Positions 4,545-63,559 of a stretch of DNA of 64,000 nt are shown here, in pieces (positions within the stretch are counted from its first letter, which is position 1; the number at the start of each line of letters is the position of its first letter). The notes under the pieces are model-generated. The model was not told the origin of the DNA. It saw only the letters and a program-made list of their open reading frames with translations, and searched no databases. Position numbers and translations under genes: made by a program. The stretch spans positions 1 through 64,000 of the IMG/VR virus record IMGVR_UViG_3300033997_000136; one strand, written 5' to 3'. This DNA comes from a virus.

Positions 4545-6116
4545 ATGCGATTCATCGATTTGACTTTACCGAATGATCCATTGACTAAAATAGCCATTGA
4601 GCATAATGGTCAGCAAATTCCATGGGATGTAACGTTTTACAATAAATCAAAGAACGTAAACTTTGACGGTATGTTCAGACATATCAACGACTATTTTAAA
4701 ACGCTATCTCCACAACAACAAGACACCATGTTTGAAACCTATCAGTCGATTAAAACAGCGATTAAAACGATGGTAGACGTGTTGGGTTTACAAACAGTGT
4801 TGATTCGTCTTGTTCGTAAGTTGTACGAACACATTGAGTTTAACAAACTACACGAATACGTTCGTGTATGCACAACACGCAGCATTCGTGTTCCATCGAC
4901 CATTAAGCACACGTACGCTGAATTGGAGATTTCTGAACGCAATCAAACGGAAAACAACTACCGCAGTAAAACGTATCTTTACGATGAATACGTAGAGCTA
5001 TTAACGCTGGCGTTAGCTTCTCGTTTGATGGCACCTGTGTGGGCTGAGTACATGACGACGTTGGATTCTACAATAAACAGTAACCACAAAGAGTTACATG
5101 CATTGAGTTTACTAAGTCGCACTGGATTACCGAATACAGCAGCGTATGTTCGTTTGCAGGAATATGTGGGAACCATCACGATTCAACAAAAGTCGCTTAC
5201 ATCAGCCATCATTGAAGGTTTAGGTACGTCACAAATGCCTGAATGGTTGTTAAGTAGTGTACTGGTTCGTAAGTTGACCATTGTTGAACTATCTAGTCAG
5301 CTCACTGAAAAGGCTGATGACAACAACGTAGTGAGTGTGGTTTGGAAGTATGTGAATAACATTATCAAATCCATTGACCGCAAACACACAGGGTACATTC
5401 GTGAAAAAGAAGTACCTCGTGATGATGGTGATGAACCAGATAGTAAATCGATTGTAGAGACGTACAAGATACGTGAAGCATTATCCGTAGGCGATATTAC
5501 AGCACCCTCTGTGTATGCTGAAGACCCATTCCGTATTGCTATTGACATTGACCCTACAATTCCTGATGAGTACATTCATTTGTCTTCAGGTATTTTAGAT
5601 GACAACACTGCACACATTCACTTTAGACCGTGGCAGTTTTACATGATGTCAATGATTATGGATAGTGTCTTATCGTGTCGTGCACCGATTGACATCAATC
5701 GTTTACCTATCTTAAGTTGTTTTGCAGCAGCTCAAGCGTTATTGTTTCATTGGGGGCATAAAGAATTGGCATTGCTCATTACAGCAAAGCAGGATGTTGA
5801 TTCTGAAGGGCGTTTATGTGGTGGGATAGAATCTCGCAATCGGATTCCAAATGAATACGTAGAAAAGTTTAAGCGATTGTACAAGTACAATCGTGTACAA
5901 GGGAGTTCTCGTTCAACGGATAGGCAAACTAACGTTGGATGTCGTTCTGTGGATGCATTTGCGTTAGAGCTGGTTCTTTGTGACTGGCGATTAACATGCG
6001 ATCCATGGTTCATCGAACAAGCTGACTTAGGTCATCACTTGCAACCTGACAATGTGATGATTGTTCCTGCAGACGTGCGGGTTCTGTTAGCTAAGTTTTT
6101 AGAACAAATAGCATAA
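4545..6116 (+). CDS. phiKZ gp68-like subunit of non-virion RNA polymerase
   Basis: A 523 aa soluble protein with no motif I can name. It is assigned from position and length. In phiKZ, gp68 (about 520 aa) is the fifth, phage-specific subunit of the non-virion RNA polymerase and precedes gp69, gp70, gp71-73 and gp74. Here the same order follows, and the last two are recognisable by sequence as beta and beta' pieces. It is mainly helical in the first two thirds. The ATG has an AAGGA ribosome site and a promoter candidate 40 bases upstream. Without a profile search the assignment is inference, though the synteny is strong. Confidence 0.62.
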   Translation: MRFIDLTLPNDPLTKIAIEHNGQQIPWDVTFYNKSKNVNFDGMFRHINDYFKTLSPQQQDTMFETYQSIKTAIKTMVDVLGLQTVLIRLVRKLYEHIEFNKLHEYVRVCTTRSIRVPSTIKHTYAELEISERNQTENNYRSKTYLYDEYVELLTLALASRLMAPVWAEYMTTLDSTINSNHKELHALSLLSRTGLPNTAAYVRLQEYVGTITIQQKSLTSAIIEGLGTSQMPEWLLSSVLVRKLTIVELSSQLTEKADDNNVVSVVWKYVNNIIKSIDRKHTGYIREKEVPRDDGDEPDSKSIVETYKIREALSVGDITAPSVYAEDPFRIAIDIDPTIPDEYIHLSSGILDDNTAHIHFRPWQFYMMSMIMDSVLSCRAPIDINRLPILSCFAAAQALLFHWGHKELALLITAKQDVDSEGRLCGGIESRNRIPNEYVEKFKRLYKYNRVQGSSRSTDRQTNVGCRSVDAFALELVLCDWRLTCDPWFIEQADLGHHLQPDNVMIVPADVRVLLAKFLEQIA

Positions 6117-11790: not shown

Positions 11791-13741
11791 ATACCAAGCC
11801 AGAGACATATGTCAATGGTCATTAGATCAATTGCGCGACCTTGAACCTGGAAAGATACTTCTTGAGTTTGATGATGGTGTGATTGAGACCACAGGACGTC
11901 GTACGATGTTTACGTGGTATATTTGGGAACTTCATCGCCAGTACCCTAAAACCCCTATGAAAAAGAACCATCACTACGGGATGGCTTTAACAAACGGGGA
12001 TACACACAGCAATGTGATGAACGCCGTGTATTGGGATTTGTACGATGCGTACGAAGCAAAGGGTCCATTAGAAGAAGTTTTACGATTGGCGTTTTGTATT
12101 ACAAACACTATCTACAACGACTTCAATGAATTCTGTGACCGTTATCCAGTATCTATTGATTCATTCGACATCATTGGTTTGATGGCTTATCCACCGATGA
12201 TGAAGATTATCGTAGGTATCCAAAGAACACAGCGCAGTATCGATGCAGCGTACGATGCATTTGCTCGGATGGTTCGTGAAGATAAGAACCTTCGCAGTAA
12301 TAAAATCGTTGCAGCAACGCGTGCTGGTTTGCTTTCTATGAAGCAGGTTCAGCAATGTTTCGTGTGTCGTGGTTATGCAACAGAAATCCATGGTGAGTTA
12401 TATCCAACCCCAATTATTCATGGGTTAGCACGCGGTATCCGCAGCTTATCTGAATCCATGAAAGAAGCACGTACTGCAACAAAATCGTTGTTGTACAATA
12501 AGTATTACTTAAGCGACTGTGAATACTTCAGTCGTAAGCTTCAATTAGGTGCGGGTGTTGTTGCTCATTTGTACCATGGTGACTGTGGTAGTACCTACAC
12601 ATGGGATTGGCCACTGGATGCTCGTGAGTTCGGTACAATGCAAGGGATGCATTATCTGGACGATGCTGGTGTAGTTAAAACCATTACGCGTGAATCAAAA
12701 GACTTGATTGGGAAAACGCTGCGTTTACGTGTTCCGTTTGGTTGTACACACAAAGACAGACAAACTGTCTGTTCTGTCTGTATGGGGTCTATTGCAGACA
12801 GTATACCAGCAGGTACATCACCAGGCCACATTGCTGCAATCAGTTTGGGTGAGAAGATTACTCAGATTACCTTGTCAACAAAACACGTGGATGGTAACGC
12901 AAACGTAGATGAAATCCAACTGGATGAATTCCAACAAGCGTATTTAGCACCGGGTGCTGAAACAAACACATTGCGACTAGCTTCAACGCTCAATGGTAAG
13001 TCAGTGAAGATTATCATTAACGCAGAAGAAGCCCGAGGTATTCCTTCTATCCAGCAACATCGTGATTTTGAAGGGATAAACATTCAAGACTTAAGCGAAT
13101 TGTCATCCGTTACATTTGTAGTTGAAGACATGGCTGATTCTGAATCTCCTGCGGATATCGCACAAGTGTCATGTTCCATGGGTTCGTGTTTAGCATCAAT
13201 GACAACTGACTTATTGTACTACATTAAGGAAAATAGTAGTCATGTACTGTCAGTATCGTCAAATGGGGATTATATAGTTGATTTGTGTGATTGGGACCAA
13301 GGGTTAACTATGTTTGCCCTGCCGCTTAAACACACAAGTATGATTGATTACATGAAGAGTGTGAGCAGTCATATCCTCTCTGGTGATAATAGCGCGAAGA
13401 GTACAACGGTCACGTTGTCGTCTCGTAAGTTTAAAGGTGAACCAGTTCAAGCTGTTAAATCACTTCTGTTGTTGATTAACAGTAAGATTCAAATCAATGC
13501 ATCTCACATATTCTTATTGGCGTATGCCATGAGTGCTGTTGATGCACGTAACCGCAACTACACACTACCTAGAGGTGGCGAAGCGTTTACGTTCGTTAAG
13601 TATGAAGATGCAATGACCTTCCGTTCTATTGGAACTAAACTTGTGTACCAAGACCAAGCGAAAGTATTAAGTCGCCCAGAGTCGTACACAGTGACCGACA
13701 GCAGACCGGCTGGTTTACTGGATGAAATGATACTAGGATAA
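11783..13741 (+). CDS. Non-virion RNA polymerase beta' subunit, C-terminal piece (phiKZ gp74-like)
   Basis: A 652 aa protein. A cysteine cluster (C321, C330, C333) is followed by a stretch ending ISLGEKITQITLSTKH (about residues 353-369). This aligns with the bacterial beta' region CxxCYG...[21 protein letters not shown], that is, the last zinc-type cluster and the trigger loop. No NADFDGD active-site motif is present; it should lie in a separate N-terminal beta' gene (gp55-like) outside this window. ATG 11783, inside the end of the beta gene and after GAGGAAG, is the start; a frame start at 11729 would overlap more and lacks a ribosome site. The pair is surely translated together. Confidence 0.88.
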   Translation: MNRYQARDICQWSLDQLRDLEPGKILLEFDDGVIETTGRRTMFTWYIWELHRQYPKTPMKKNHHYGMALTNGDTHSNVMNAVYWDLYDAYEAKGPLEEVLRLAFCITNTIYNDFNEFCDRYPVSIDSFDIIGLMAYPPMMKIIVGIQRTQRSIDAAYDAFARMVREDKNLRSNKIVAATRAGLLSMKQVQQCFVCRGYATEIHGELYPTPIIHGLARGIRSLSESMKEARTATKSLLYNKYYLSDCEYFSRKLQLGAGVVAHLYHGDCGSTYTWDWPLDAREFGTMQGMHYLDDAGVVKTITRESKDLIGKTLRLRVPFGCTHKDRQTVCSVCMGSIADSIPAGTSPGHIAAISLGEKITQITLSTKHVDGNANVDEIQLDEFQQAYLAPGAETNTLRLASTLNGKSVKIIINAEEARGIPSIQQHRDFEGINIQDLSELSSVTFVVEDMADSESPADIAQVSCSMGSCLASMTTDLLYYIKENSSHVLSVSSNGDYIVDLCDWDQGLTMFALPLKHTSMIDYMKSVSSHILSGDNSAKSTTVTLSSRKFKGEPVQAVKSLLLLINSKIQINASHIFLLAYAMSAVDARNRNYTLPRGGEAFTFVKYEDAMTFRSIGTKLVYQDQAKVLSRPESYTVTDSRPAGLLDEMILG

Positions 13742-13745
13742 CGTA

Positions 13746-15284
13746 ATGAAACAACAAATCATCATCCGTGTGTTTTCACATGGACTCTCTATCAAAACCT
13801 CTGACTACCGTGTTCGCACGGTGTTAGAAAGCTTCCGTGAGACTGTAGCACAGTGGGACTTTAGAAAAGTCGCACCTTCATACAAAATGAAGCGGGTGAT
13901 GGTTCGTTCTTATTCAGGTCGAACAAATAACCGAATGGATTATCGGTTCCATCGTAATCAATTAAACGAATTGTTAAAACACTTTGACCATAATGGAATA
14001 CCCCGTTCATCTGTCGAAATCGTAAAGATAAAGATGTATGAACCTATCAAGGTGGAAATGAACTTAGAGTTATTTGACCCCTACGACTATCAAGTTCCAT
14101 TAATTGATTTTTGTAGCACCACAGAACAATGTACGCAAGCAATTCACTTGCAAGCAGGTCGCGGTAAAACCCAAGCGGCACTTCACATCGCAAAGCGCGG
14201 TGCAGAACGTACCATGATTCTTTTACGTGGTGGGTATGTAAGTCGTTGGGCACCTGAGATTATCAAAGCATTAAATACAAAACCTAAATCAGGTGAGTTA
14301 TTGATTATTCAAGGAGGGAAAGATTTAAGACGGGTGATTGAAGCGGCAAAGGCTGGACTGATTAGTGAAAACTTAAAGTTTGTTATCATTACAAACAAAA
14401 CAGTCTTTCAGTTGATTGAAGCGTATGAGAATAGTTACGATAAAAACGAGTATGGAATAGAACCTCAGCAACTGTATCGTTTACTGGGGATAGGTCGTGT
14501 TATTGTAGATGAGGTGCATGAAGATTTCCATTTGGTTATGCGCGCTACTATTTACAGTCACGTACCACACCACACCGTGTTATCGGCAACACTGGATACA
14601 GAAGACAGACTGAGAAAACTTCTGTATTCAATTATGTTTCCACCAGAAACGTTTGCTCCAATGGTAGCGTATAAAGCCTATATTGAAGTACGCGCCGTAC
14701 ACTATCGTTTAAAGCAACCCAAACTGTTCCACACGACTCGAAAAGGTCAAAACAAGTATTCACACAGTGCATTTGAAGAATCGCTCCTACGCAATCGTGA
14801 GGCGTTTGACGGCTATATGAAAATTATCTTTGAACGATTAGGTGTCAACTATCTGGAACCTTATCAAGGGGGTCAGAAGGCACTGGTGTTTTGTTCATTG
14901 ACTAACTTTGTAGAAGCAGTCACTACGAGACTTCGTGAAGTATACACTGACTTAGTGATTAACTCTTTTTATTCAGGAATCCCTGATAGTGTTTTAGAAA
15001 AGAGTGATATCATTGTGACTACCATTGAATCGTGTGGTACTGCACGTGATATTCCTGATTTATCGTACACACTACTTACACGTGCTGTTCGTAAATTAGA
15101 AGCCAATGAACAAATCAAAGGTCGCTTACGTGAACTGAAACGTTACCCTGGTCGACATCCTCGTTTTGATTACTTAGTGTGTGACGATATTCCAAAACAC
15201 GTTGAGTATCATAATGAGAAGAAAAATCAGTTCAAAGGGAAAGCGTTGTTTCATATTGACGAGTTTATTAGACAACCCATTTAG
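13746..15284 (+). CDS. Superfamily 2 DNA/RNA helicase (UvsW-like)
   Basis: A 512 aa ATP-dependent helicase. Motif I is AGRGKT (137-142), motif II DEVH (255-258), motif III SAT (280-282). A second RecA-like domain follows, with KALVFCSLTNF (motif IV-like, near 380) and a TTIESCGTARDIPDL stretch (motif V-like, near 425). The N-terminal 110 residues form an extra domain typical of UvsW-type branch-migration helicases. The gene starts 5 bases after the beta' gene, where phiKZ also has a helicase. The likely role is remodelling replication or recombination forks, or R-loops, inside the phage nucleus. The DEVH box and motif order are clear; the subfamily is less so. Confidence 0.87.
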   Translation: MKQQIIIRVFSHGLSIKTSDYRVRTVLESFRETVAQWDFRKVAPSYKMKRVMVRSYSGRTNNRMDYRFHRNQLNELLKHFDHNGIPRSSVEIVKIKMYEPIKVEMNLELFDPYDYQVPLIDFCSTTEQCTQAIHLQAGRGKTQAALHIAKRGAERTMILLRGGYVSRWAPEIIKALNTKPKSGELLIIQGGKDLRRVIEAAKAGLISENLKFVIITNKTVFQLIEAYENSYDKNEYGIEPQQLYRLLGIGRVIVDEVHEDFHLVMRATIYSHVPHHTVLSATLDTEDRLRKLLYSIMFPPETFAPMVAYKAYIEVRAVHYRLKQPKLFHTTRKGQNKYSHSAFEESLLRNREAFDGYMKIIFERLGVNYLEPYQGGQKALVFCSLTNFVEAVTTRLREVYTDLVINSFYSGIPDSVLEKSDIIVTTIESCGTARDIPDLSYTLLTRAVRKLEANEQIKGRLRELKRYPGRHPRFDYLVCDDIPKHVEYHNEKKNQFKGKALFHIDEFIRQPI

Positions 15285-19550: not shown

Positions 19551-20015
19551 ATGACTAAAGAACGCCAACGTCAACGCAAAGGTAAGTACCAAGCACGACA
19601 GAAGATGAAAGAAACTCAAAACATTCTGCACGACTTGTTTACACTGGATGCCAAAGTAACCAATGCGTTAAATACGCCATCTCGTTTAAACCCACTCATG
19701 TCTGATGAGACGTTAATGGCACATGCAGACAAAGCACGCGTCGTTGAATTAGCAGGTTTCATCGATGCCGATGTGCGTCGCCTAGCAGTTCGGGTTGAAG
19801 TAGTTCGTACCAAATTTAATCCAAAGTCTGTGTTTAACACAGATGCTGAAAAACATCGTGCAAACCAAATCGGTTTAGAGTTTTCTACTATTTTAGAAGA
19901 CTTTGTTGAAACTGTGGATGCTAACATTTCTACGCTGATGGATTTGTTAAATGAAGCAGCGCGTAAACGCGATGAAGCCGCTAAAGCATCACCTGAAGTG
20001 GAGACCGTAGAATGA
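19551..20015 (+). CDS. Hypothetical helical protein, 154 aa
   Basis: The N-terminus is very basic (KERQRQRKGKYQARQKMK), and the rest is helical with heptad-like spacing; the C-terminus is acidic and alanine-rich. Its stop overlaps the ATG of the chaperone-like gene (ATGA), so both are made together. A small helical protein coupled to a tail-assembly-chaperone-like protein could be a tail or head assembly factor, but the family is not recognised. AAGGATT precedes the start; the 140-base gap upstream separates divergent units. Confidence 0.72.
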   Translation: MTKERQRQRKGKYQARQKMKETQNILHDLFTLDAKVTNALNTPSRLNPLMSDETLMAHADKARVVELAGFIDADVRRLAVRVEVVRTKFNPKSVFNTDAEKHRANQIGLEFSTILEDFVETVDANISTLMDLLNEAARKRDEAAKASPEVETVE

Positions 20016-21634
20016 CCGTAAACGAAACCAACGGGATTGGTGAGTACAATCCTAATGAACCTTTTTTGGCAGACACAGACACAACTGTGCAAGCTGTAGA
20101 AGTTCCAAAAGACGAACCGTCACCAGCTCCCGCAGATGACCAGTCTGTTAACACCGAAGTTTCATCAGACTCTGACGATGAAACTACATCAGACGACGAC
20201 AGTGAATCCTCAGTCACTGAAAGACCATCTGTTCTTCGTGCGTATGAAATACCAGCAGGTCGTCATCCATTTGTCTTATCTATTCCATCGGATGGTAAAC
20301 ACGACGAACCATTGGTTGTACTGACCATCAGTAAAACTGACTTTAAAGAAATCCGTGATTTAACGGAAAAGAAAATTGTCAGCGGCGATAAAATCAATCA
20401 ATGGGTTGAAGCCACCACCATTGCATTAGGTCAGTATCATTCGGACGATGTTACTCACCACTTCGAACGTGAAGGTAGTGATTGGACAAACCAAGTAAAA
20501 CACGGTGATGTCACCATTGGTCCAAAACGTTCAAAGTTTAACGTCAGTAAACGCGCAAACTCAGTAGTCAGCGGTGAAGATGCATTGTTATTAGCGCGTC
20601 AATCTGCAAACCTGGGTACAACGTTAGACTTCCCATTATTCCACACTGGGATTCGTTTGGGTATTCGTGCACCACTGGATGCTGAGTTGTTACAGGTTGA
20701 ACAGGCTATCAGTTTAGATAAAATAAACTTAGGCCGTCGTACAGCCGGTGCTTCGTTTGCGAACACCAGTATCTACATGTTTAAACATGCGGTGGATTTA
20801 GCATTACGTAAAGTGTTTCACACCAACTATGAGTCTGTAGTTGCTGAAGACTTGCGTAAAGTTATTCGTGTGACTGACGTACCTCGTCTGTTAGCATCCA
20901 TGATGATTACTGTGTACCCACACGGGTATTACATGGTTCGCCCGTGTGTGTCTAACCCTGAAAAGTGTACACACATTGATGAAGGTACGGTGAACTTAAA
21001 CCACATGCTTCAAACGGATGATGCATCGTTAACAGCTATCCAAAAAGCAATGTTGTTATCTGATGCAGCAATGACAGCAGACCGTCTTGAGACGTATCAG
21101 AACGCACACGTAGCGAAACAAATCGATCGCGTTGAGTTGATGGAAGGTATCTGGTTGCATCTGGAAGTCCCCACCATCCAGACGTTTATGGATTCAGGTC
21201 GCCGTTGGGTAGACGGTATTGTTGAAATGATTAAAGAAACGTTCAAACAAGAACCTTCTGAAAAAGAGCGCGATGCGTTCATCCTTCAACAAGCCATGGT
21301 TACACGGATGCGTCGTTACGCACACTGGATTAAGAAAATCGAGTATGTAGATGAAATCTTTGTTACCGATGTACTTGACATTGAACGTACGCTAAATGAG
21401 TGGTCTGGTGAAGATGATTTGTACAAAACGTATAAAGAGAAAATCGAAACGTTCATTAGCAACGCGACGATTGATGCGTTTGGTATTCCGTACCACACCT
21501 GTACAAAGTGTAAATCTGAACCTCACCCAGCGTTCAAGTTAAAGAACTTAGAACACTTGATTGCAGTGGATGCGTTAGAGTGTTTTTTTACCCTACTGTC
21601 CCGCCGTTCATCCAAGACACTAACCAGAATCTAG
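20012..21634 (+). CDS. Tail assembly chaperone / T4 gp26-type baseplate protein-like, zero-frame product
   Basis: 540 aa. An acidic S/D/E-rich leader of about 75 residues precedes a long mixed domain. The C-terminal part holds CTKC (C497, C500) and, 24 residues later, CFF (524-526). This C..C...FF ending resembles what I remember of T4 gp26-type baseplate/tail-assembly proteins, which finish near the FF. Here the FF is encoded inside a T7 run that forms an in-frame T TTT TTT slippery heptamer. The zero frame adds only 14 odd residues after FF and stops at 21634. A -1 shift continues for 161 residues to 22074, giving a fusion of about 687 aa, as in the lambda G/GT arrangement. The family match is moderate. 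Confidence 0.65.
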   Translation: MTVNETNGIGEYNPNEPFLADTDTTVQAVEVPKDEPSPAPADDQSVNTEVSSDSDDETTSDDDSESSVTERPSVLRAYEIPAGRHPFVLSIPSDGKHDEPLVVLTISKTDFKEIRDLTEKKIVSGDKINQWVEATTIALGQYHSDDVTHHFEREGSDWTNQVKHGDVTIGPKRSKFNVSKRANSVVSGEDALLLARQSANLGTTLDFPLFHTGIRLGIRAPLDAELLQVEQAISLDKINLGRRTAGASFANTSIYMFKHAVDLALRKVFHTNYESVVAEDLRKVIRVTDVPRLLASMMITVYPHGYYMVRPCVSNPEKCTHIDEGTVNLNHMLQTDDASLTAIQKAMLLSDAAMTADRLETYQNAHVAKQIDRVELMEGIWLHLEVPTIQTFMDSGRRWVDGIVEMIKETFKQEPSEKERDAFILQQAMVTRMRRYAHWIKKIEYVDEIFVTDVLDIERTLNEWSGEDDLYKTYKEKIETFISNATIDAFGIPYHTCTKCKSEPHPAFKLKNLEHLIAVDALECFFTLLSRRSSKTLTRI

Positions 21635-22074
21635 AGGCTCCTGACAGTCATGTGCTGTCTCCTCAGTTTGGTCAGAAGGAATTCTTTAACACACCTCAGG
21701 TTTCAAATACGTTACGACACTATCACACGCACGATTCTGTGCTTGCTGGACAAGTGCTCGGGATGGCGTATGACATGGACTACGGAATACATGACCACAC
21801 CAAAGACCCACATCCATGGTCTGGTATCATCCTTCACCCAAAAGAGGATATTCGAAAGATAGATCCATTTCGTTTATCCCTTGATAAGTTTTTAAAGAAC
21901 AACGTCAAGGAACTCACAGGGTATACACATCGTGAATTCACGATGTTAGAACGAAGCCATCAACAATTAATTATTGATGCGTTAGTTCACTACAAGGATT
22001 ATGTTGCACGTCTTCAAGAAGAAGCCAAACGTAAAGCTGAGGCTGAGAAAGAGAAGAAAGGTAAGGACAGGTAA
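21580..22074 (+). CDS. -1 frame extension of the chaperone-like gene
   Basis: An open frame of 164 codons overlaps the end of the preceding gene by 55 bases. It has no good start: GTG 21580 has no ribosome site and GTG 21652 lies 14 bases from an AGAGG. Codon use looks like the neighbours, so the frame is coding. It enters naturally by a -1 slip at 21583-21589, adding YPTVPPFIQD and onward to the upstream protein. The product is rich in H and D in the middle, and ends in a charged helix of E, K and R. A terminator follows. It could instead be an independent gene or the result of a homopolymer sequencing error. Confidence 0.7.
   Translation: MFFYPTVPPFIQDTNQNLEAPDSHVLSPQFGQKEFFNTPQVSNTLRHYHTHDSVLAGQVLGMAYDMDYGIHDHTKDPHPWSGIILHPKEDIRKIDPFRLSLDKFLKNNVKELTGYTHREFTMLERSHQQLIIDALVHYKDYVARLQEEAKRKAEAEKEKKGKDR
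21583..21589 (+). other. Candidate -1 ribosomal frameshift site (T TTT TTT)
   Basis: Seven T bases lie in the X XXY YYZ register of the upstream frame: TGT TTT TTT ACC. A -1 slip yields TTT TTT TAC, the frame of the 3' extension. I did not identify a convincing downstream pseudoknot by eye. Confidence 0.6.
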
Positions 22075-22081
22075 TATTGAT

Positions 22082-22110
22082 GTCGTAGGGTCATCCCTAC
22101 GACTCTTTTA
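22082..22110 (+). terminator. Intrinsic terminator
   Basis: GTCGTAGGG and CCCTACGAC form a perfect 9 bp stem with a TCAT loop, followed by TCTTTTA. It ends the chaperone-like unit. Confidence 0.75.
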
Positions 22111-33921: not shown

Positions 33922-36867
33922 CTATACGTTGATTTGTTCTTGATGTGGTAAGAACTCAACAATCACACCATCGATAATACTAATCGTACCATCACCTAAT
34001 AAGGTTAGTGATTTTGCTAAGTTAATCTTACTATCAACATCGACAACAGTGACAATCTCAAAGTTGTTATCTGCACCACCTAAACCTGTAACCAAAACAT
34101 CGATAATCTCTGTTGTGGTTCCATTTCTTATTTCAGACACAATGTCGTTGATACGAATTGTTGTCTGTTGTAAGACCTTGGCGATTGCAGTACGAGCTAA
34201 TCGAGCTAATGGTTCACGCAAATCAAGATTCTTTAAATTCTCTTCTGTTAAGTAAAACGCAACAGAGAAGTTTTGTCGAGAATCAATCGTTGTAATGACA
34301 CCTTCTTTTACTCGAACACGCACATCACCGGCTGTGGTTTTTGGTGTATACCAAAGCTTCGTGTTTTCTAACAAATCTCGATTGTAACGAGGTATCTCAG
34401 ATGTGACCCACGCAACAAGTGTGTTGATAGAATCATCACGGTACAAGTTTGCAGCAGCATCCGTTGTAATCGTAAACAATCCTTCAAACAACACGACGTC
34501 CACTTGAACCATCATGCTACGAGAATGTTCATAAACAATATCACCGTTATCATCGTACTTGATATCACCAATCTCGTGTTCAAAGATAACGTGACCATTC
34601 TCATCCAACATCACATCGCCTTGATTGTGTTTTATTTGTCGACTGAGCTTTTGCGTAGCCGCATCGTAATACACAATATCAAAACCACGTTCATCGGTGA
34701 CATAAACCGTCCTATCCCATACCTTCGGAATATTCTCAGTATAACGTCGAGGTTCGCCACTACCCACAACAACACGACTACGATTCCACAGGTAATCCAG
34801 ATAACGACCAAATTGTATTGTCAGACGTTCCTGCACAACACCATACGCAGTTTCAGGGAGTAAGAAATACTTAGAGATTGTATCAATCTCTGAACGCGTC
34901 ATTCCTGTCACATTGTAATCACTGACACTGAATATCAGTTCAAACGAGGTGATAAGTTCAGCTAAGAAATTTCTATCCGCAGTATCTGCCATAAAGAAGT
35001 TCTTTACAGCAAGTTGATGTGTGGTGTTGATATCAAAATCAGTAACGACTCTAAATTCATACACACGTTCACCTTCCGCTGTTTTAGCAAGAAGCGTACC
35101 ATTTACGCCAGCGTACGATACATCGTTGCGCGGTTTAAATAATAACTGTGCATGGACTTGAGTATCCGCCATTGCTTTGACTATATCGCCAGAGATGGTA
35201 GCAACCACTAAGCGATAACCGTATGCCGTTTTCTCAATAGCCAGCGCACCAGATGCTAGTTGAAGTTGTAATGTTTCATTTTGTTGAATGAACTCACGAC
35301 GAACAACAGATGGTTTGTCCATGTAGTACGCACGACTGGTAAATTCGTTATCTGTTAAATCAAGAACCATGTGAAATGGATTGTAGTAATAATCTTTCGT
35401 TGAGTATTCATTGATAAGACTATCACCTTGCAACTGAGAAAGTCGGTCTATTTCAAACTGACTGACTAAACGAAGCACACCATCTTCTATGGTAAACAAA
35501 CTTCCTGATTTCATAACTAGCTTCTCACCCACGTCAATCACCGTAGGAGCACTTGCAATCGTCTCATACGTCGCTTGAAGCGTTTTAGCAACCACACCCA
35601 TAGGTGAGTTCACAATCGTCGAAGCAGGAGCAGGGAGCGCCTTTGTAGCTAAGAATATACGGTTTGTTAAATTATCTACATGACGAATCAGTTGATAATC
35701 ACGTTCCGCTAAATCCAATTCCAACTGTTTAAAGGATTTCTTCTCAGAGTTACCCACAGCACCGTATATCACTTGCTCGCGAAGCTCTTCAAAGGTTAAA
35801 CCGTTTGTACCACCTGTTAATATCGAATCAGAGAAATACGTCTTTGTTGGAATAGCTCGCCATGCATTGACGTAATTGTTGCCAAGTGCACTTAAATCAT
35901 TCCATGTGACATCAAACATACCAGGGCTGTAACGTTGTAAGTTAACGGTCACATCACCTAGCGTCGTATAAATGTCAACACGAATGTTACTCTTCACCAA
36001 CCCTTTCGTTAGATACACCTGAGGGATACGAACGTTAAGTTGACCTTCAAGTACACGAAGCACTGCAGTCACTCGGTTTTCATCATACACTTGGTCTGAA
36101 TGCGTCGTGTACATCTCAACCCACTCATCTGTATTGGTCCGATGGTAGACTCGTGCGTAGAAGAATTTATCAACCAACGTATAGGTTTTATTAAACCCTG
36201 TTGAAAGATTCATTTGGTCTGAAAAAGACGCATTGTTAAATTGCAGCAGTGGAATTTGAATGGCAATAATTTCTTGACCAACAAACGCAGTCATTGCTTC
36301 GGGTGCAATAAACGTGTAACTGTCTACAATGTTACTTTCGAGCGTTTGAATAGGCGATGGCTTCTCATTGTCATACATGACTTGAATAGCACCATGTGGC
36401 ATTACACGGATATCAATCGGGTATTGCAACGACAACACAATGTTGTCTACTCGAAAGAATGTATCTCGTGGTATGGTCACTTTACGAATACCACCATCAG
36501 CAATCGCCGCTTGTCGCACTTCTTGTGCTGGAACCATAATGGTAATAACCGTTTGACCTGGTGTGTCAAAACGGTCTTTGTAGTTTACATCACTCATGTG
36601 ACCATACAAGTCAGTCATGGTTTGAGATAAACTTGGATAGATGCGACGAGCAACGACTTCACCTCGCACAAGCGCAGCACAACTTGTCGCTGTAATCGCT
36701 TCAATACAAAATGGGAAAGGAGCTGCTGCTGATAAAACATCATATTCCGCATCAGACGGAGTTTGTGTGTTGTAGTGGTCAATAGCTCCATAAATCACAC
36801 GCTTTACAGCAGCAGGATTTGCACGCAAGTCAATACTTGCTTTAATAAGGTCAGCAACAGTTGTCAT
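33922..36867 (-). CDS. Large virion protein, probable baseplate wedge component
   Basis: 981 aa. The N-terminal 100 residues (helix, then a beta-rich part) and the many repeated beta-rich segments look like contractile-tail baseplate proteins of the T4 gp6/J type; the match is by overall character, not a decisive motif. The start is ATG 36867, overlapping the upstream stop by one base (TAATG); the GTG at 36879 lies inside the previous gene. Two-gene unit with 36867-37844. The size, lack of enzyme motifs and place among head/tail genes support a structural role. Which part of the virion is uncertain. Confidence 0.6.
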   Translation of the reverse strand: MTTVADLIKASIDLRANPAAVKRVIYGAIDHYNTQTPSDAEYDVLSAAAPFPFCIEAITATSCAALVRGEVVARRIYPSLSQTMTDLYGHMSDVNYKDRFDTPGQTVITIMVPAQEVRQAAIADGGIRKVTIPRDTFFRVDNIVLSLQYPIDIRVMPHGAIQVMYDNEKPSPIQTLESNIVDSYTFIAPEAMTAFVGQEIIAIQIPLLQFNNASFSDQMNLSTGFNKTYTLVDKFFYARVYHRTNTDEWVEMYTTHSDQVYDENRVTAVLRVLEGQLNVRIPQVYLTKGLVKSNIRVDIYTTLGDVTVNLQRYSPGMFDVTWNDLSALGNNYVNAWRAIPTKTYFSDSILTGGTNGLTFEELREQVIYGAVGNSEKKSFKQLELDLAERDYQLIRHVDNLTNRIFLATKALPAPASTIVNSPMGVVAKTLQATYETIASAPTVIDVGEKLVMKSGSLFTIEDGVLRLVSQFEIDRLSQLQGDSLINEYSTKDYYYNPFHMVLDLTDNEFTSRAYYMDKPSVVRREFIQQNETLQLQLASGALAIEKTAYGYRLVVATISGDIVKAMADTQVHAQLLFKPRNDVSYAGVNGTLLAKTAEGERVYEFRVVTDFDINTTHQLAVKNFFMADTADRNFLAELITSFELIFSVSDYNVTGMTRSEIDTISKYFLLPETAYGVVQERLTIQFGRYLDYLWNRSRVVVGSGEPRRYTENIPKVWDRTVYVTDERGFDIVYYDAATQKLSRQIKHNQGDVMLDENGHVIFEHEIGDIKYDDNGDIVYEHSRSMMVQVDVVLFEGLFTITTDAAANLYRDDSINTLVAWVTSEIPRYNRDLLENTKLWYTPKTTAGDVRVRVKEGVITTIDSRQNFSVAFYLTEENLKNLDLREPLARLARTAIAKVLQQTTIRINDIVSEIRNGTTTEIIDVLVTGLGGADNNFEIVTVVDVDSKINLAKSLTLLGDGTISIIDGVIVEFLPHQEQINV

Positions 36868-37844
36868 TATATCCACCACGTTATTTCACGAGTCACTAAG
36901 TCAATATGCGGATAACCACGCATACTCCCAGTTGTTGCTAATTCAAACGGAGTCATTTTACGATACGTTGCTTGACGAGAACCATCTCGCATTGCACCGT
37001 TAAACATACACACCGTTAAATTAAATTCTTCAAGCAATACAGGAACGTCATACTCCGCCCATAAACAATGGAATGGGATGGAGATTTGGTCCATGTTACG
37101 AATACCACCATCTTCACGGTTGTAATCCATAAACGCACCGGTGCTATCTGCCATTGGCACAGCACCAATCATGCAACCTATTTTAGATACATACCGTTTA
37201 TCTTCAGACAACACAATTCGCCAAATACGACCCCAGTAATCCATCTCACGAAGCATAGAGTGTTCTGGGTAAGGTGTCATGTCTCCTGTATACACTGCAC
37301 CTTGGTACGTCACCCAAGGAAGCATTAACTTACTTACTGGGTCACCACGTGTATTGGCAAAGTTCATGGTTAGCTGATACGTGCCATTTAGTTCAGCAAC
37401 GTCATCTGCCATAGACCACACTTCTTTACGAATCCCTTCTGGTGAAGTGTAATAGTTCATTGTCGCTTCAGGCCATCCGGTGCAGGAGATACATGTGTTG
37501 GTGATAATAGGAATAAAGGCTTGTTTGATGTCAAACAAATCACTCCCTATTTGTGCACCAATAATAGGGTCTAGCATACATCTTATAGCCCTGTATATCG
37601 ACTGTCGGTCGTCAGATAAAAGTGGCGTTAATTTTTGAACACCAGTGACATTGTCATGCGATAAATTCATACGAGGACGCGTTACCAACAACATCCCTTG
37701 CTCATCAGAGTTTTTTGGGAATAAAGTACCTACTCCTTGGTGGTCTAATCCCCAGAAAATATCTGTCAGTGCGGAATTGGGTCGACCAATGCCACTGGCG
37801 GAGACGATATCGTCTAGAATTGTTCTGTTGTCTACGTTACTCAT
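36867..37844 (-). CDS. Virion-associated hypothetical protein, 325 aa
   Basis: The first gene of the - strand pair ending at 33922; it shares its stop with the next start (TAATG), which implies coupled translation. The protein is beta-rich with many W, Y and M residues and looks globular. No recognised family. The ribosome site ATGAGG lies 11 bases before the ATG. Because of the tight coupling to a large structural protein, it is probably another baseplate or tail component. Only 29 bases separate it from the divergent 37874 gene, so promoters for both must overlap coding sequence. Confidence 0.62.
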   Translation of the reverse strand: MSNVDNRTILDDIVSASGIGRPNSALTDIFWGLDHQGVGTLFPKNSDEQGMLLVTRPRMNLSHDNVTGVQKLTPLLSDDRQSIYRAIRCMLDPIIGAQIGSDLFDIKQAFIPIITNTCISCTGWPEATMNYYTSPEGIRKEVWSMADDVAELNGTYQLTMNFANTRGDPVSKLMLPWVTYQGAVYTGDMTPYPEHSMLREMDYWGRIWRIVLSEDKRYVSKIGCMIGAVPMADSTGAFMDYNREDGGIRNMDQISIPFHCLWAEYDVPVLLEEFNLTVCMFNGAMRDGSRQATYRKMTPFELATTGSMRGYPHIDLVTREITWWI

Positions 37845-61349: not shown

Positions 61350-63437
61350 CTATTCATTTGGGAATGAAGCAAGTACCTTAGGACGCATTGATGGAATAGG
61401 CACAAAGTAGCGAGCACTCGATTCTGTAAAGAACCGCACTCCAATGGTCATCTTCACATCGTGACGCGACACCCCTTGACGAAGTGTTTTGTCTTCCCAT
61501 CGGTTTAAGTTCACGACATCAAACTTAGCAGATACACCCAATCCTTTTACACTGATAGGTGCAATAGTTGGTATCTCTACTCGATGGAATGCTTCCCCTT
61601 TTGTATCAATATTACCCGGCTTAATAAACGGGATATCAAGTACACGGTACGCAGACGAGTTGATGGTTTGAATGTATTGCACAGAGTAGCTACTTAAATC
61701 ACGCATGATGTTAAGCATCGCGCGTTGTAACGCTTCAAGTGACGTTACTTTCTGTGCACTGGACTGAGTTAATTCACTTAAGATACTTGCGTAAAATAAA
61801 TCCGCGTTGTAATCATTAAAGTCTAAGAAATCAAATCCACGCTCTTGCATCCACTCTTCTAAGTTCTGTCCAGCATTAATATCACAGAACACCCCCATGT
61901 GAAAACGACGACTTGCATTCTTAAGAACACCACGACGCATGTAGTGACCTTGTTTTGCATAGTACAATCGTTTATTATTTTGATACGTGTAAATAGTGCG
62001 AACCTGTTCATAAAACGCAGCAATGGATAAATACAATCCTGTTTGAGGTGTATTGTCACGAAGCATATTGAGTTCCGCATCCGTCACATACCCAGGTATA
62101 CAGACTGCTTTTAATTGAGCTAACGTGGGTATTTGTGGATTCAACACAAAGTTGACTTTAAAACGAGGAATACGTTCTATGTTCAACCCGTTACGTCGCG
62201 CCACAATAAACCAAGCCGTTACCCATGCTTCTCGTGCAGACAAGTTAATCCGTTGACCAGTGATAGGGTGTGTGACGTTAACAAACGCGTTTAAGCGATT
62301 TGTAGCTGCGTAATACTGCCAGTGTTCTAACAACAAATCCTCAAACGAATGAGGTACACTATCTGTTGCATCAAGAAGCGCTGATTCATACACCTTTGTA
62401 TCTAACCGGTTAATCTGCGAATACGCAAATGCTGTTTCAGCTTCAACGATAGCTGTATCCACAACCCGTGGATTGTGGCGTGCCATGGAGTTCTCTAAAC
62501 GCATCACGTAATCTACTGACTTCTCTGGATTACTACCATCACCAGGGTGGTCGTTGACCGGTTCTCTAAACACCTCTATCATTGGGATAAGTTCATCCGG
62601 CATGTTGTCTAAACGATGCTTAATGACATACCGAGCCAATGGTAAGTTTCTGTCATTGATAATGTTTTGCAAGAGCAATTCAAAGGTGCTTTGTTTACCG
62701 ATGTGTTGCATGATGTATCGTAAATTACGATACAAGAACAGTTGTTGTTTTAAAGTTAAAAACGACATGTATTTATCAAGTCGACCATTGGAGGCTAAGT
62801 ATTCACGAATGTGAAACGAGTGCACCATTGGTGTACCACAGTTCTCCACACGTAAGTTTAGAATCTCAGCTAAAATGGCACCATACAAGATACCTTGCGC
62901 AACTGCAGGGTAATAGTCGTCTGTGATTTCATATCCTGTTACATTCCAACGCGTTGATACGTTGTAAATGTGTTGTTGCAACCGAGGAATTAAATTCTCT
63001 TCTTGTGGTTCAACTAATGTTCTATCGTAATAAAGAATAGTACCATCAGGTGCATCAATGGCATATTGTCTATCAATAGGGTTTAATATCCCTTGAATCA
63101 AATCTTCTTGCAATGGAAATTTTTTGACTAAATCTCTGTAATAAAAACTACCATACGCGTAGGCGCGTGCTGTCGCTTTATGTATCTGTAAATTCTCTTT
63201 AGTGAACTGAATAGTTTCTAAAGTATCTAATGAGACTACTTCCATCATGCTGTCAGTGATATGGTAGTCACCTGCTAAATTCGCATAATACTTATATTGA
63301 CGAACGTCTTCTTCAGAATAGCCGTGTGAGATTAACATGTACTGATTAACACGTTCAGCAGTGATTGTTGATTTTACTATCATGGTAAATGCAAGTTGTA
63401 GACATTTAGCACGGTATACGTTAAAAAAGCTTGACAT
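61350..63437 (-). CDS. Probable virion structural protein, 695 aa
   Basis: A large soluble protein, helical for the first 550 residues with many Y and N, ending in a beta-rich domain. No catalytic motif, signal or membrane segment is visible. It is divergent from the portal-like gene that follows, in the phiKZ region of capsid, portal and other head genes, so a neck, head or baseplate role is likely; I cannot name the family. GAGGGA lies before the ATG at 63437. Confidence 0.66.
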   Translation of the reverse strand: MSSFFNVYRAKCLQLAFTMIVKSTITAERVNQYMLISHGYSEEDVRQYKYYANLAGDYHITDSMMEVVSLDTLETIQFTKENLQIHKATARAYAYGSFYYRDLVKKFPLQEDLIQGILNPIDRQYAIDAPDGTILYYDRTLVEPQEENLIPRLQQHIYNVSTRWNVTGYEITDDYYPAVAQGILYGAILAEILNLRVENCGTPMVHSFHIREYLASNGRLDKYMSFLTLKQQLFLYRNLRYIMQHIGKQSTFELLLQNIINDRNLPLARYVIKHRLDNMPDELIPMIEVFREPVNDHPGDGSNPEKSVDYVMRLENSMARHNPRVVDTAIVEAETAFAYSQINRLDTKVYESALLDATDSVPHSFEDLLLEHWQYYAATNRLNAFVNVTHPITGQRINLSAREAWVTAWFIVARRNGLNIERIPRFKVNFVLNPQIPTLAQLKAVCIPGYVTDAELNMLRDNTPQTGLYLSIAAFYEQVRTIYTYQNNKRLYYAKQGHYMRRGVLKNASRRFHMGVFCDINAGQNLEEWMQERGFDFLDFNDYNADLFYASILSELTQSSAQKVTSLEALQRAMLNIMRDLSSYSVQYIQTINSSAYRVLDIPFIKPGNIDTKGEAFHRVEIPTIAPISVKGLGVSAKFDVVNLNRWEDKTLRQGVSRHDVKMTIGVRFFTESSARYFVPIPSMRPKVLASFPNE

Positions 63438-63559
63438 GAGGGAACTCCGTTCAAGTCGTCATTCAATGGCTATATTATCCCCGATTAATGTTTATAGTAA
63501 TCACCAATAATCTGAGCCTATCTTATTTTTTAACCACATCGATGTGAGTAGGGATTTTT

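What the first reader, a model, noticed from the sequence alone, without database searches (positions are those of the whole stretch)
21560..22074. Candidate programmed -1 frameshift in a tail-assembly-chaperone-like gene
Seven T bases lie in the T TTT TTT slippery register, exactly at the FF that ends a C..C...FF region resembling T4 gp26-type proteins. The -1 frame then stays open for 161 codons, has no good start of its own and shows normal codon use. The result would be a 540 aa and a 687 aa product, like lambda G/GT. I recall no description of this in phiKZ-like phages. A homopolymer error is the main alternative.
Basis: partly seen in the sequence, partly recalled or inferred. Interest (0 to 1): 0.75.

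Follow-up and report, generated by a model that had tools for sequence, protein, structure and literature searches.

The report
Conserved ribosomal frameshift in phiKZ-like phages
A short run of T bases near the end of one gene almost certainly makes some ribosomes slip back one base and build a longer second protein; the same switch sits at the same place in every intact relative examined across the phiKZ-like giant phages, yet no examined genome record annotates it.

Summary
T7 at 21583-21589 lies in the T_TTT_TTT register, 42 nt before the frame-0 stop. The -1 frame is open 21520-22074, and a slip gives 526+161 = 687 aa beside the 540 aa product. It is not a sequencing error. In 74 distinct homologous loci (phiKZ, PhiPA3, 201phi2-1, Goslar, SPN3US, Erwinia, Vibrio, Aeromonas and metagenomic phages) the same FFxL site carries N_TTT_TTY/G, and the downstream domain is always in the overlapping -1 frame (in RVTF4 it is later interrupted). 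It is never fused in frame and never a separate gene. The first Phe codon is TTT in 71/71 sites (23.7 expected). Only one other T6+ run occurs in these 74 genes. Frame-0 third-position divergence falls from 45% before the site to 12% after it. Most loci have no start codon between site and conserved domain. I conclude that this is a deeply conserved programmed -1 ribosomal frameshift, unannotated in the records seen and absent from the papers I could search. The function is less certain. The fold resembles T4-like baseplate-hub assembly proteins (gp26/gp51), so a G/GT-like tail-assembly chaperone is likely but unproven. No general RNA stimulator was found.

The parts
19551..20015 (+). upstream 154 aa ORF of the same unit, overlapping the next start by ATGA
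   Evidence: similar to LucasX_93 (blastp E 2e-5), the syntenic gene upstream of the LucasX homologue
20012..21634 (+). frame-0 ORF (540 aa), homologue of phiKZ gp77, PhiPA3 gp074 and 201phi2-1 gp136; predicted T4 gp26/gp51-like hub-assembly fold
   Evidence: tblastn against 204 phage records; PHROG 4585, E 4e-96; AlphaFold2 pTM 0.77; Foldseek
21583..21589 (+). slippery heptamer T_TTT_TTT (codons TGT TTT TTT)
   Evidence: conserved position in 74 loci
21590..21634 (+). overlap read in both frames after the slip, up to the frame-0 stop
   Evidence: dual-coding constraint in relatives
21589..22074 (+). -1 frame extension (161 codons plus stop): all-helical domain, PHROG 12109, separate 'hypothetical protein' in other records
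22082..22103 (+). intrinsic terminator-like hairpin followed by a T-rich tail, closing the unit after the -1 stop
   Evidence: (z -5.4)

Best explanation
This is a programmed -1 ribosomal frameshift. Most ribosomes read the gene to the frame-0 stop and make a 540 aa protein. A minority, with two Phe-tRNAs on TTT TTT, slip back one base on T_TTT_TTT, read TAC onward in the -1 frame and make a 687 aa protein with an extra 161-residue helical domain. Shown by sequence comparison: layout, conservation, dual coding, and the lack of another start in most loci. Inferred: the slip event, its low efficiency, and the function. The two products most likely act like lambda gpG/gpGT: the shared part is a T4 gp26/gp51-type tail or baseplate-hub assembly protein, and the extension adds a second binding site, so a fixed ratio matters. 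The confidence below is for the frameshift; I put the chaperone role at about 0.6.
For: In 74 distinct loci the downstream domain lies in the overlapping -1 frame and the site reads T_TTT_TTT (34), T_TTT_TTC (18), G_TTT_TTT (9), A_TTT_TTT (7), G_TTT_TTC (3) or T_TTT_TTG (3). The first Phe codon is TTT in 71/71 regex-located sites against 23.7 expected, even in GC-rich genes that otherwise use TTC. The 74 genes hold only one other T6+ run. In 14 disjoint pairs divergence is 21.6% in the 300 nt before the site, 8.1% in the overlap and 26.8% after the frame-0 stop (Fisher p 1e-17). Frame-0 third-position divergence drops from 45% upstream to 12% after the site. The -1 domain evolves with -1-frame third-position bias. 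In 43 of 73 loci there is no ATG/GTG/TTG between the site and the conserved block, and only one locus has an ATG with a Shine-Dalgarno-like match. Function: Foldseek hits to T4-like baseplate hub assembly proteins at probability 1.00, E 4e-4 and 1e-3. In the 201phi2-1 record gp138 and gp139 are marked as found by mass spectrometry but gp135-137 are not, as a non-virion chaperone would be.
Against: There is no direct protein evidence. 16 of 74 sites, mostly in phages of Pseudomonas and relatives, lack a perfect X_XXY_YYZ heptamer (A/G_TTT_TTT, G_TTT_TTC) and would need a slip with a first-base mismatch or a single-tRNA slip. No conserved downstream structure or internal Shine-Dalgarno was found. 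U_UUU_UUU is a weaker site than A_AAA_AAG in E. coli (PMC5009743). The gene is not next to a tape-measure-sized ORF. The gp26 relation is not significant by sequence.
Confidence: 0.94

Rival explanations
1. Homopolymer sequencing or assembly error: the true gene is one continuous frame or has a stop.
For: T7 is a classical error site. One relative, RVTF4, does seem to carry a further frame break inside the second domain.
Against: The same two-frame layout occurs in 74 distinct loci, from many separate isolates and assemblies, with T-runs of 5 to 9. No relative has a fused frame. A second contig is identical.
Confidence: 0.01
2. Two separate proteins: the second domain is made from its own internal start by translational coupling or reinitiation, and the overlap is only compact packing.
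For: Genome annotators call it a separate gene with various starts. Some loci have an ATG/GTG/TTG before the conserved block (30 of 73).
Against: 43 of 73 loci have no start codon there and only one has ATG plus a Shine-Dalgarno-like match. Annotated starts in phiKZ and others cut into the conserved domain. Dual-coding constraint begins around the slip site, and TTT is retained against codon bias.
Confidence: 0.04
3. Transcriptional slippage on the T-run (by the phage's own RNA polymerase) gives a mixed mRNA population, rather than ribosome slippage.
For: These phages carry multi-subunit RNA polymerases, and the run is a homopolymer.
Against: 22 of 74 runs are only 5 or 6 bases, short for polymerase slippage (general knowledge). 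Sites with TTC or TTG at the last codon fit tandem-tRNA slippage.
Confidence: 0.04
4. The frameshift is real, but the protein is not a tail or hub chaperone; it could be a structural, head or regulatory protein of unknown kind.
For: There is no tape-measure neighbour, the neighbours are RNA polymerase subunit genes, the 540 aa domain is far larger than lambda gpG, and the PDB library gives no match.
Against: Foldseek matches to T4-like hub assembly proteins, collinear weak gp26 matches ending at the FF, and no mark as a virion protein in the 201phi2-1 record.
Confidence: 0.35

Closest known systems
Phage lambda G/GT tail assembly chaperones, -1 frameshift
   Same: A -1 slip near the 3' end of an upstream ORF appends a further domain; both forms share the N-terminal part; the layout is conserved while sequences diverge.
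   Different: Slippery site is poly-U, not lambda's; the N part is about 540 aa instead of about 140 aa; the gene is not next to a tape-measure gene; sequence similarity to gpG/gpT was not tested directly and no chaperone family model matched.
Phage T4 gp26 / gp51 (Pfam PF12322 T4_baseplate, baseplate hub assembly)
   Same: Predicted fold matches T4-like hub assembly proteins. T4 gp26 ends in a CPxC...EFFELL stretch like the CPxC...FFTL stretch at the slip site.
   Different: T4 uses two separate genes without a frameshift. The family's Pfam model does not match the window protein. The jumbo-phage protein is more than twice as long.
E. coli dnaX-type -1 frameshift (A_AAA_AAG)
   Same: Tandem-tRNA slip on a homopolymer-like heptamer with a stop codon nearby.
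   Different: Here the slip yields the longer product, and no Shine-Dalgarno or general hairpin stimulator was detected.

Membership tests
Programmed -1 ribosomal frameshift genes | Slippery site in the correct codon register inside the overlap of two ORFs | tested here: met
   a canonical heptamer is present in 58 of 74 loci, the rest are N_TTT_TTY
Programmed -1 ribosomal frameshift genes | Conserved selection for slipperiness and dual coding across relatives | tested here: met
Programmed -1 ribosomal frameshift genes | Stimulatory element (hairpin, pseudoknot or Shine-Dalgarno) | tested here: inconclusive
   stem-loops in some loci only; no pseudoknot test done
Programmed -1 ribosomal frameshift genes | Fusion product detected | not testable with these tools
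   needs mass spectrometry or a reporter
Lambda G/GT-type tail assembly chaperones | Two products with a shared N part by -1 frameshift | tested here: met
   at sequence level only:
Lambda G/GT-type tail assembly chaperones | Gene directly upstream of the tape measure gene | tested here: not met
   no ORF above 600 aa lies within about 6 kb either side; neighbours are RNA polymerase subunits and small genes
Lambda G/GT-type tail assembly chaperones | Absent from the mature virion | tested here: inconclusive
   201phi2-1 gp138 and gp139 marked as found by mass spectrometry, gp135-137 not marked
T4 gp26/gp51 (PF12322) | Match to the Pfam model above its cut-off | tested here: not met
   none for the window protein, best E 0.071 in one of 47 relatives
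T4 gp26/gp51 (PF12322) | Same fold | tested here: inconclusive
   Foldseek probability 1.00, E 4e-4 to 2e-3 to T4-like hub assembly and baseplate proteins, but TM-scores only 0.24-0.51

The most novel reading that the evidence does not exclude
The gene is a single frameshifting version of T4's hub-assembly pair: the 540 aa form would correspond to gp26 (which ends at EFFELL) and the long form to gp51 (the same domain plus a C-terminal extension). T4 would then have replaced an ancestral frameshift by gene duplication, unifying T4 hub assembly factors with G/GT chaperones.
Probability: 0.15. Interest if true: 0.75.

Novelty: new variant of a known kind. Interest (0 to 1): 0.62.

Why it matters
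A conserved gene of the nucleus-forming jumbo phages, including phiKZ, appears to make two proteins by recoding, and none of the annotated records examined shows this; the second domain is annotated as a separate or truncated hypothetical gene. It gives a first functional lead (tail or hub assembly) for a family mostly labelled 'hypothetical', offers a natural poly-U frameshift series tuned over many GC contents, and can be checked in phiKZ proteomic or ribosome-profiling data.

Tried and rejected
Sequencing error: rejected by conservation and a second contig. Own start for the second domain: rejected as a general explanation. Upstream internal Shine-Dalgarno: depleted, 7% against 20% in controls. 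Downstream RNA stimulator: mean z -0.69 against -0.41 in controls, none in the window. I thought weak heptamers might be compensated by structure; the test gave p 0.86. T4 gp51 C-terminal extension as homologue of the -1 domain: 65 of 200 column shuffles score as high. A first profile search of IMG/VR with all 14 sequences failed for lack of a conserved stretch. PDB fold search of the N part gave nothing. PF12322 in the window's own genome gave nothing, but its controls also gave nothing, so that is uninformative.

Full report
Observation. The window carries T7 at 21583-21589 in the context GAG TGT TTT TTT ACC, so frame 0 reads T_TTT_TTT. The frame-0 ORF is 20012-21634 (540 aa) and the -1 frame is open 21520-22074. 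After a slip, decoding resumes at TAC 21589, giving 526 + 161 = 687 aa. The window is part of a 213,150-base virus record. A second IMG/VR contig is identical over 9,620 bases including the T7, though it may come from the same sample.

Relatives. No phage record matches at DNA level, but the frame-0 protein is a homologue of phiKZ gp77, PhiPA3 gp074 and 201phi2-1 gp136, with matches in 204 records. The -1 extension matches the gene that follows in 19 records. Neighbouring genes are similar to phiKZ gp80 and, more weakly, gp79, and a gp75 relative lies at 13737-15281. I fetched 25 phage loci and two sets of IMG/VR loci, which reduce to 74 distinct loci with a readable site. In 72 of the 73 loci where the second domain was detected by profile it lies in the overlapping -1 frame. 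The exception, RVTF4, starts in the same -1 frame and breaks later, inside the domain, in a way that looks like an indel or error. Aeromonas D9, below the profile threshold, has the same layout on inspection. None of the annotated phage records fetched shows a joined CDS here.

Selection on the site. The heptamers are TTTTTTT 34, TTTTTTC 18, GTTTTTT 9, ATTTTTT 7, GTTTTTC 3 and TTTTTTG 3. The first Phe codon is TTT in 71 of 71 regex-located sites where gene-wide usage predicts 23.7; related loci are not independent, so I give no formal probability. Some GC-rich genes hold almost all their TTT codons here. Only one other T6+ run exists in these 74 genes. In 14 disjoint pairs, divergence is 21.6% upstream, 8.1% in the overlap and 26.8% beyond the frame-0 stop, and frame-0 third positions fall from 45% upstream to 12% after the site. 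This is what dual coding from the slip point predicts. The downstream region has third-position bias in the -1 frame.

Alternatives. A separate start for the second domain fails as a general explanation: 43 of 73 loci have no ATG/GTG/TTG between the site and the conserved HV..FG block, and only one has an ATG with a Shine-Dalgarno-like match. Polymerase slippage is less likely because 22 of 74 runs are only 5 or 6 T; it is not excluded. 16 loci lack a perfect heptamer; their mechanism may be a one-tRNA slip, which is my inference. No conserved stimulator was found. A strong terminator hairpin follows the -1 stop.

Function. Pfam gives no match to the window protein. T4 gp26 ranks first among eleven T4 proteins in profile comparison, aligned at CPxC...FF, but weakly. 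The AlphaFold2 model of the N part (pTM 0.77) matches T4-like baseplate hub assembly proteins in BFVD at probability 1.00 and E 4e-4 to 1e-3, with modest TM-scores; the PDB library gives nothing. The -1 domain is all-helical, and its best-scoring matches that carry a name are equivalent jumbo-phage proteins. Record annotators have also called some homologues baseplate or hub assembly proteins. The gene is not adjacent to a tape-measure-sized ORF. A chaperone-like role is therefore likely but inferred.

Known literature. Searches of the held library for phiKZ, Chimalliviridae, PHIKZ077 and frameshifting found no description, and the reviews and tool papers checked do not mention it. Most subscription papers and all preprints on bioRxiv were not searchable, so prior description cannot be excluded.

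Verdict. This is a real, deeply conserved -1 frameshift in an unstudied gene: a new variant of the known G/GT kind of recoding. The frameshift is near-certain from comparison; the protein product and its role remain to be shown at the bench.

Noticed in passing
L007 (Pseudomonas phage RVTF4) about 5350-5410: The -1 ORF ends early and the homologous sequence continues in the third frame; probably an indel or sequencing error in that record.
   Followed up: partly
L002 5398-5640, L009 5464-5691, L011 5506-5712: Annotated starts of the second gene (such as PHIKZ076.4) lie inside the conserved domain, so these records give truncated proteins.
   Followed up: yes
L013 5143-5691: Erwinia phage Simmy50 gp271 is annotated overlapping gp272 by 136 nt, probably an artefact of placing a start upstream of the slip site.
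   Followed up: partly
L069, L074, L064, L067 downstream of the slip site: Some metagenomic loci have a strong stem (such as TACTCAGCG...CGCTGAGTA) a few bases after the slip site, a possible local stimulator.
   Followed up: partly
L015 gp51 residues 200-249: T4 gp51 carries a C-terminal extension beyond the gp26-like domain whose ISKMIPxER stretch falls in register with the SxxEFLxLPR motif of the -1 domain; not significant in a shuffle test.
   Followed up: partly
window 33925-36885 (-) and 61353-63458 (-): Large conserved ORFs matching unknown-function PHROGs 3248 and 3222.
   Followed up: no
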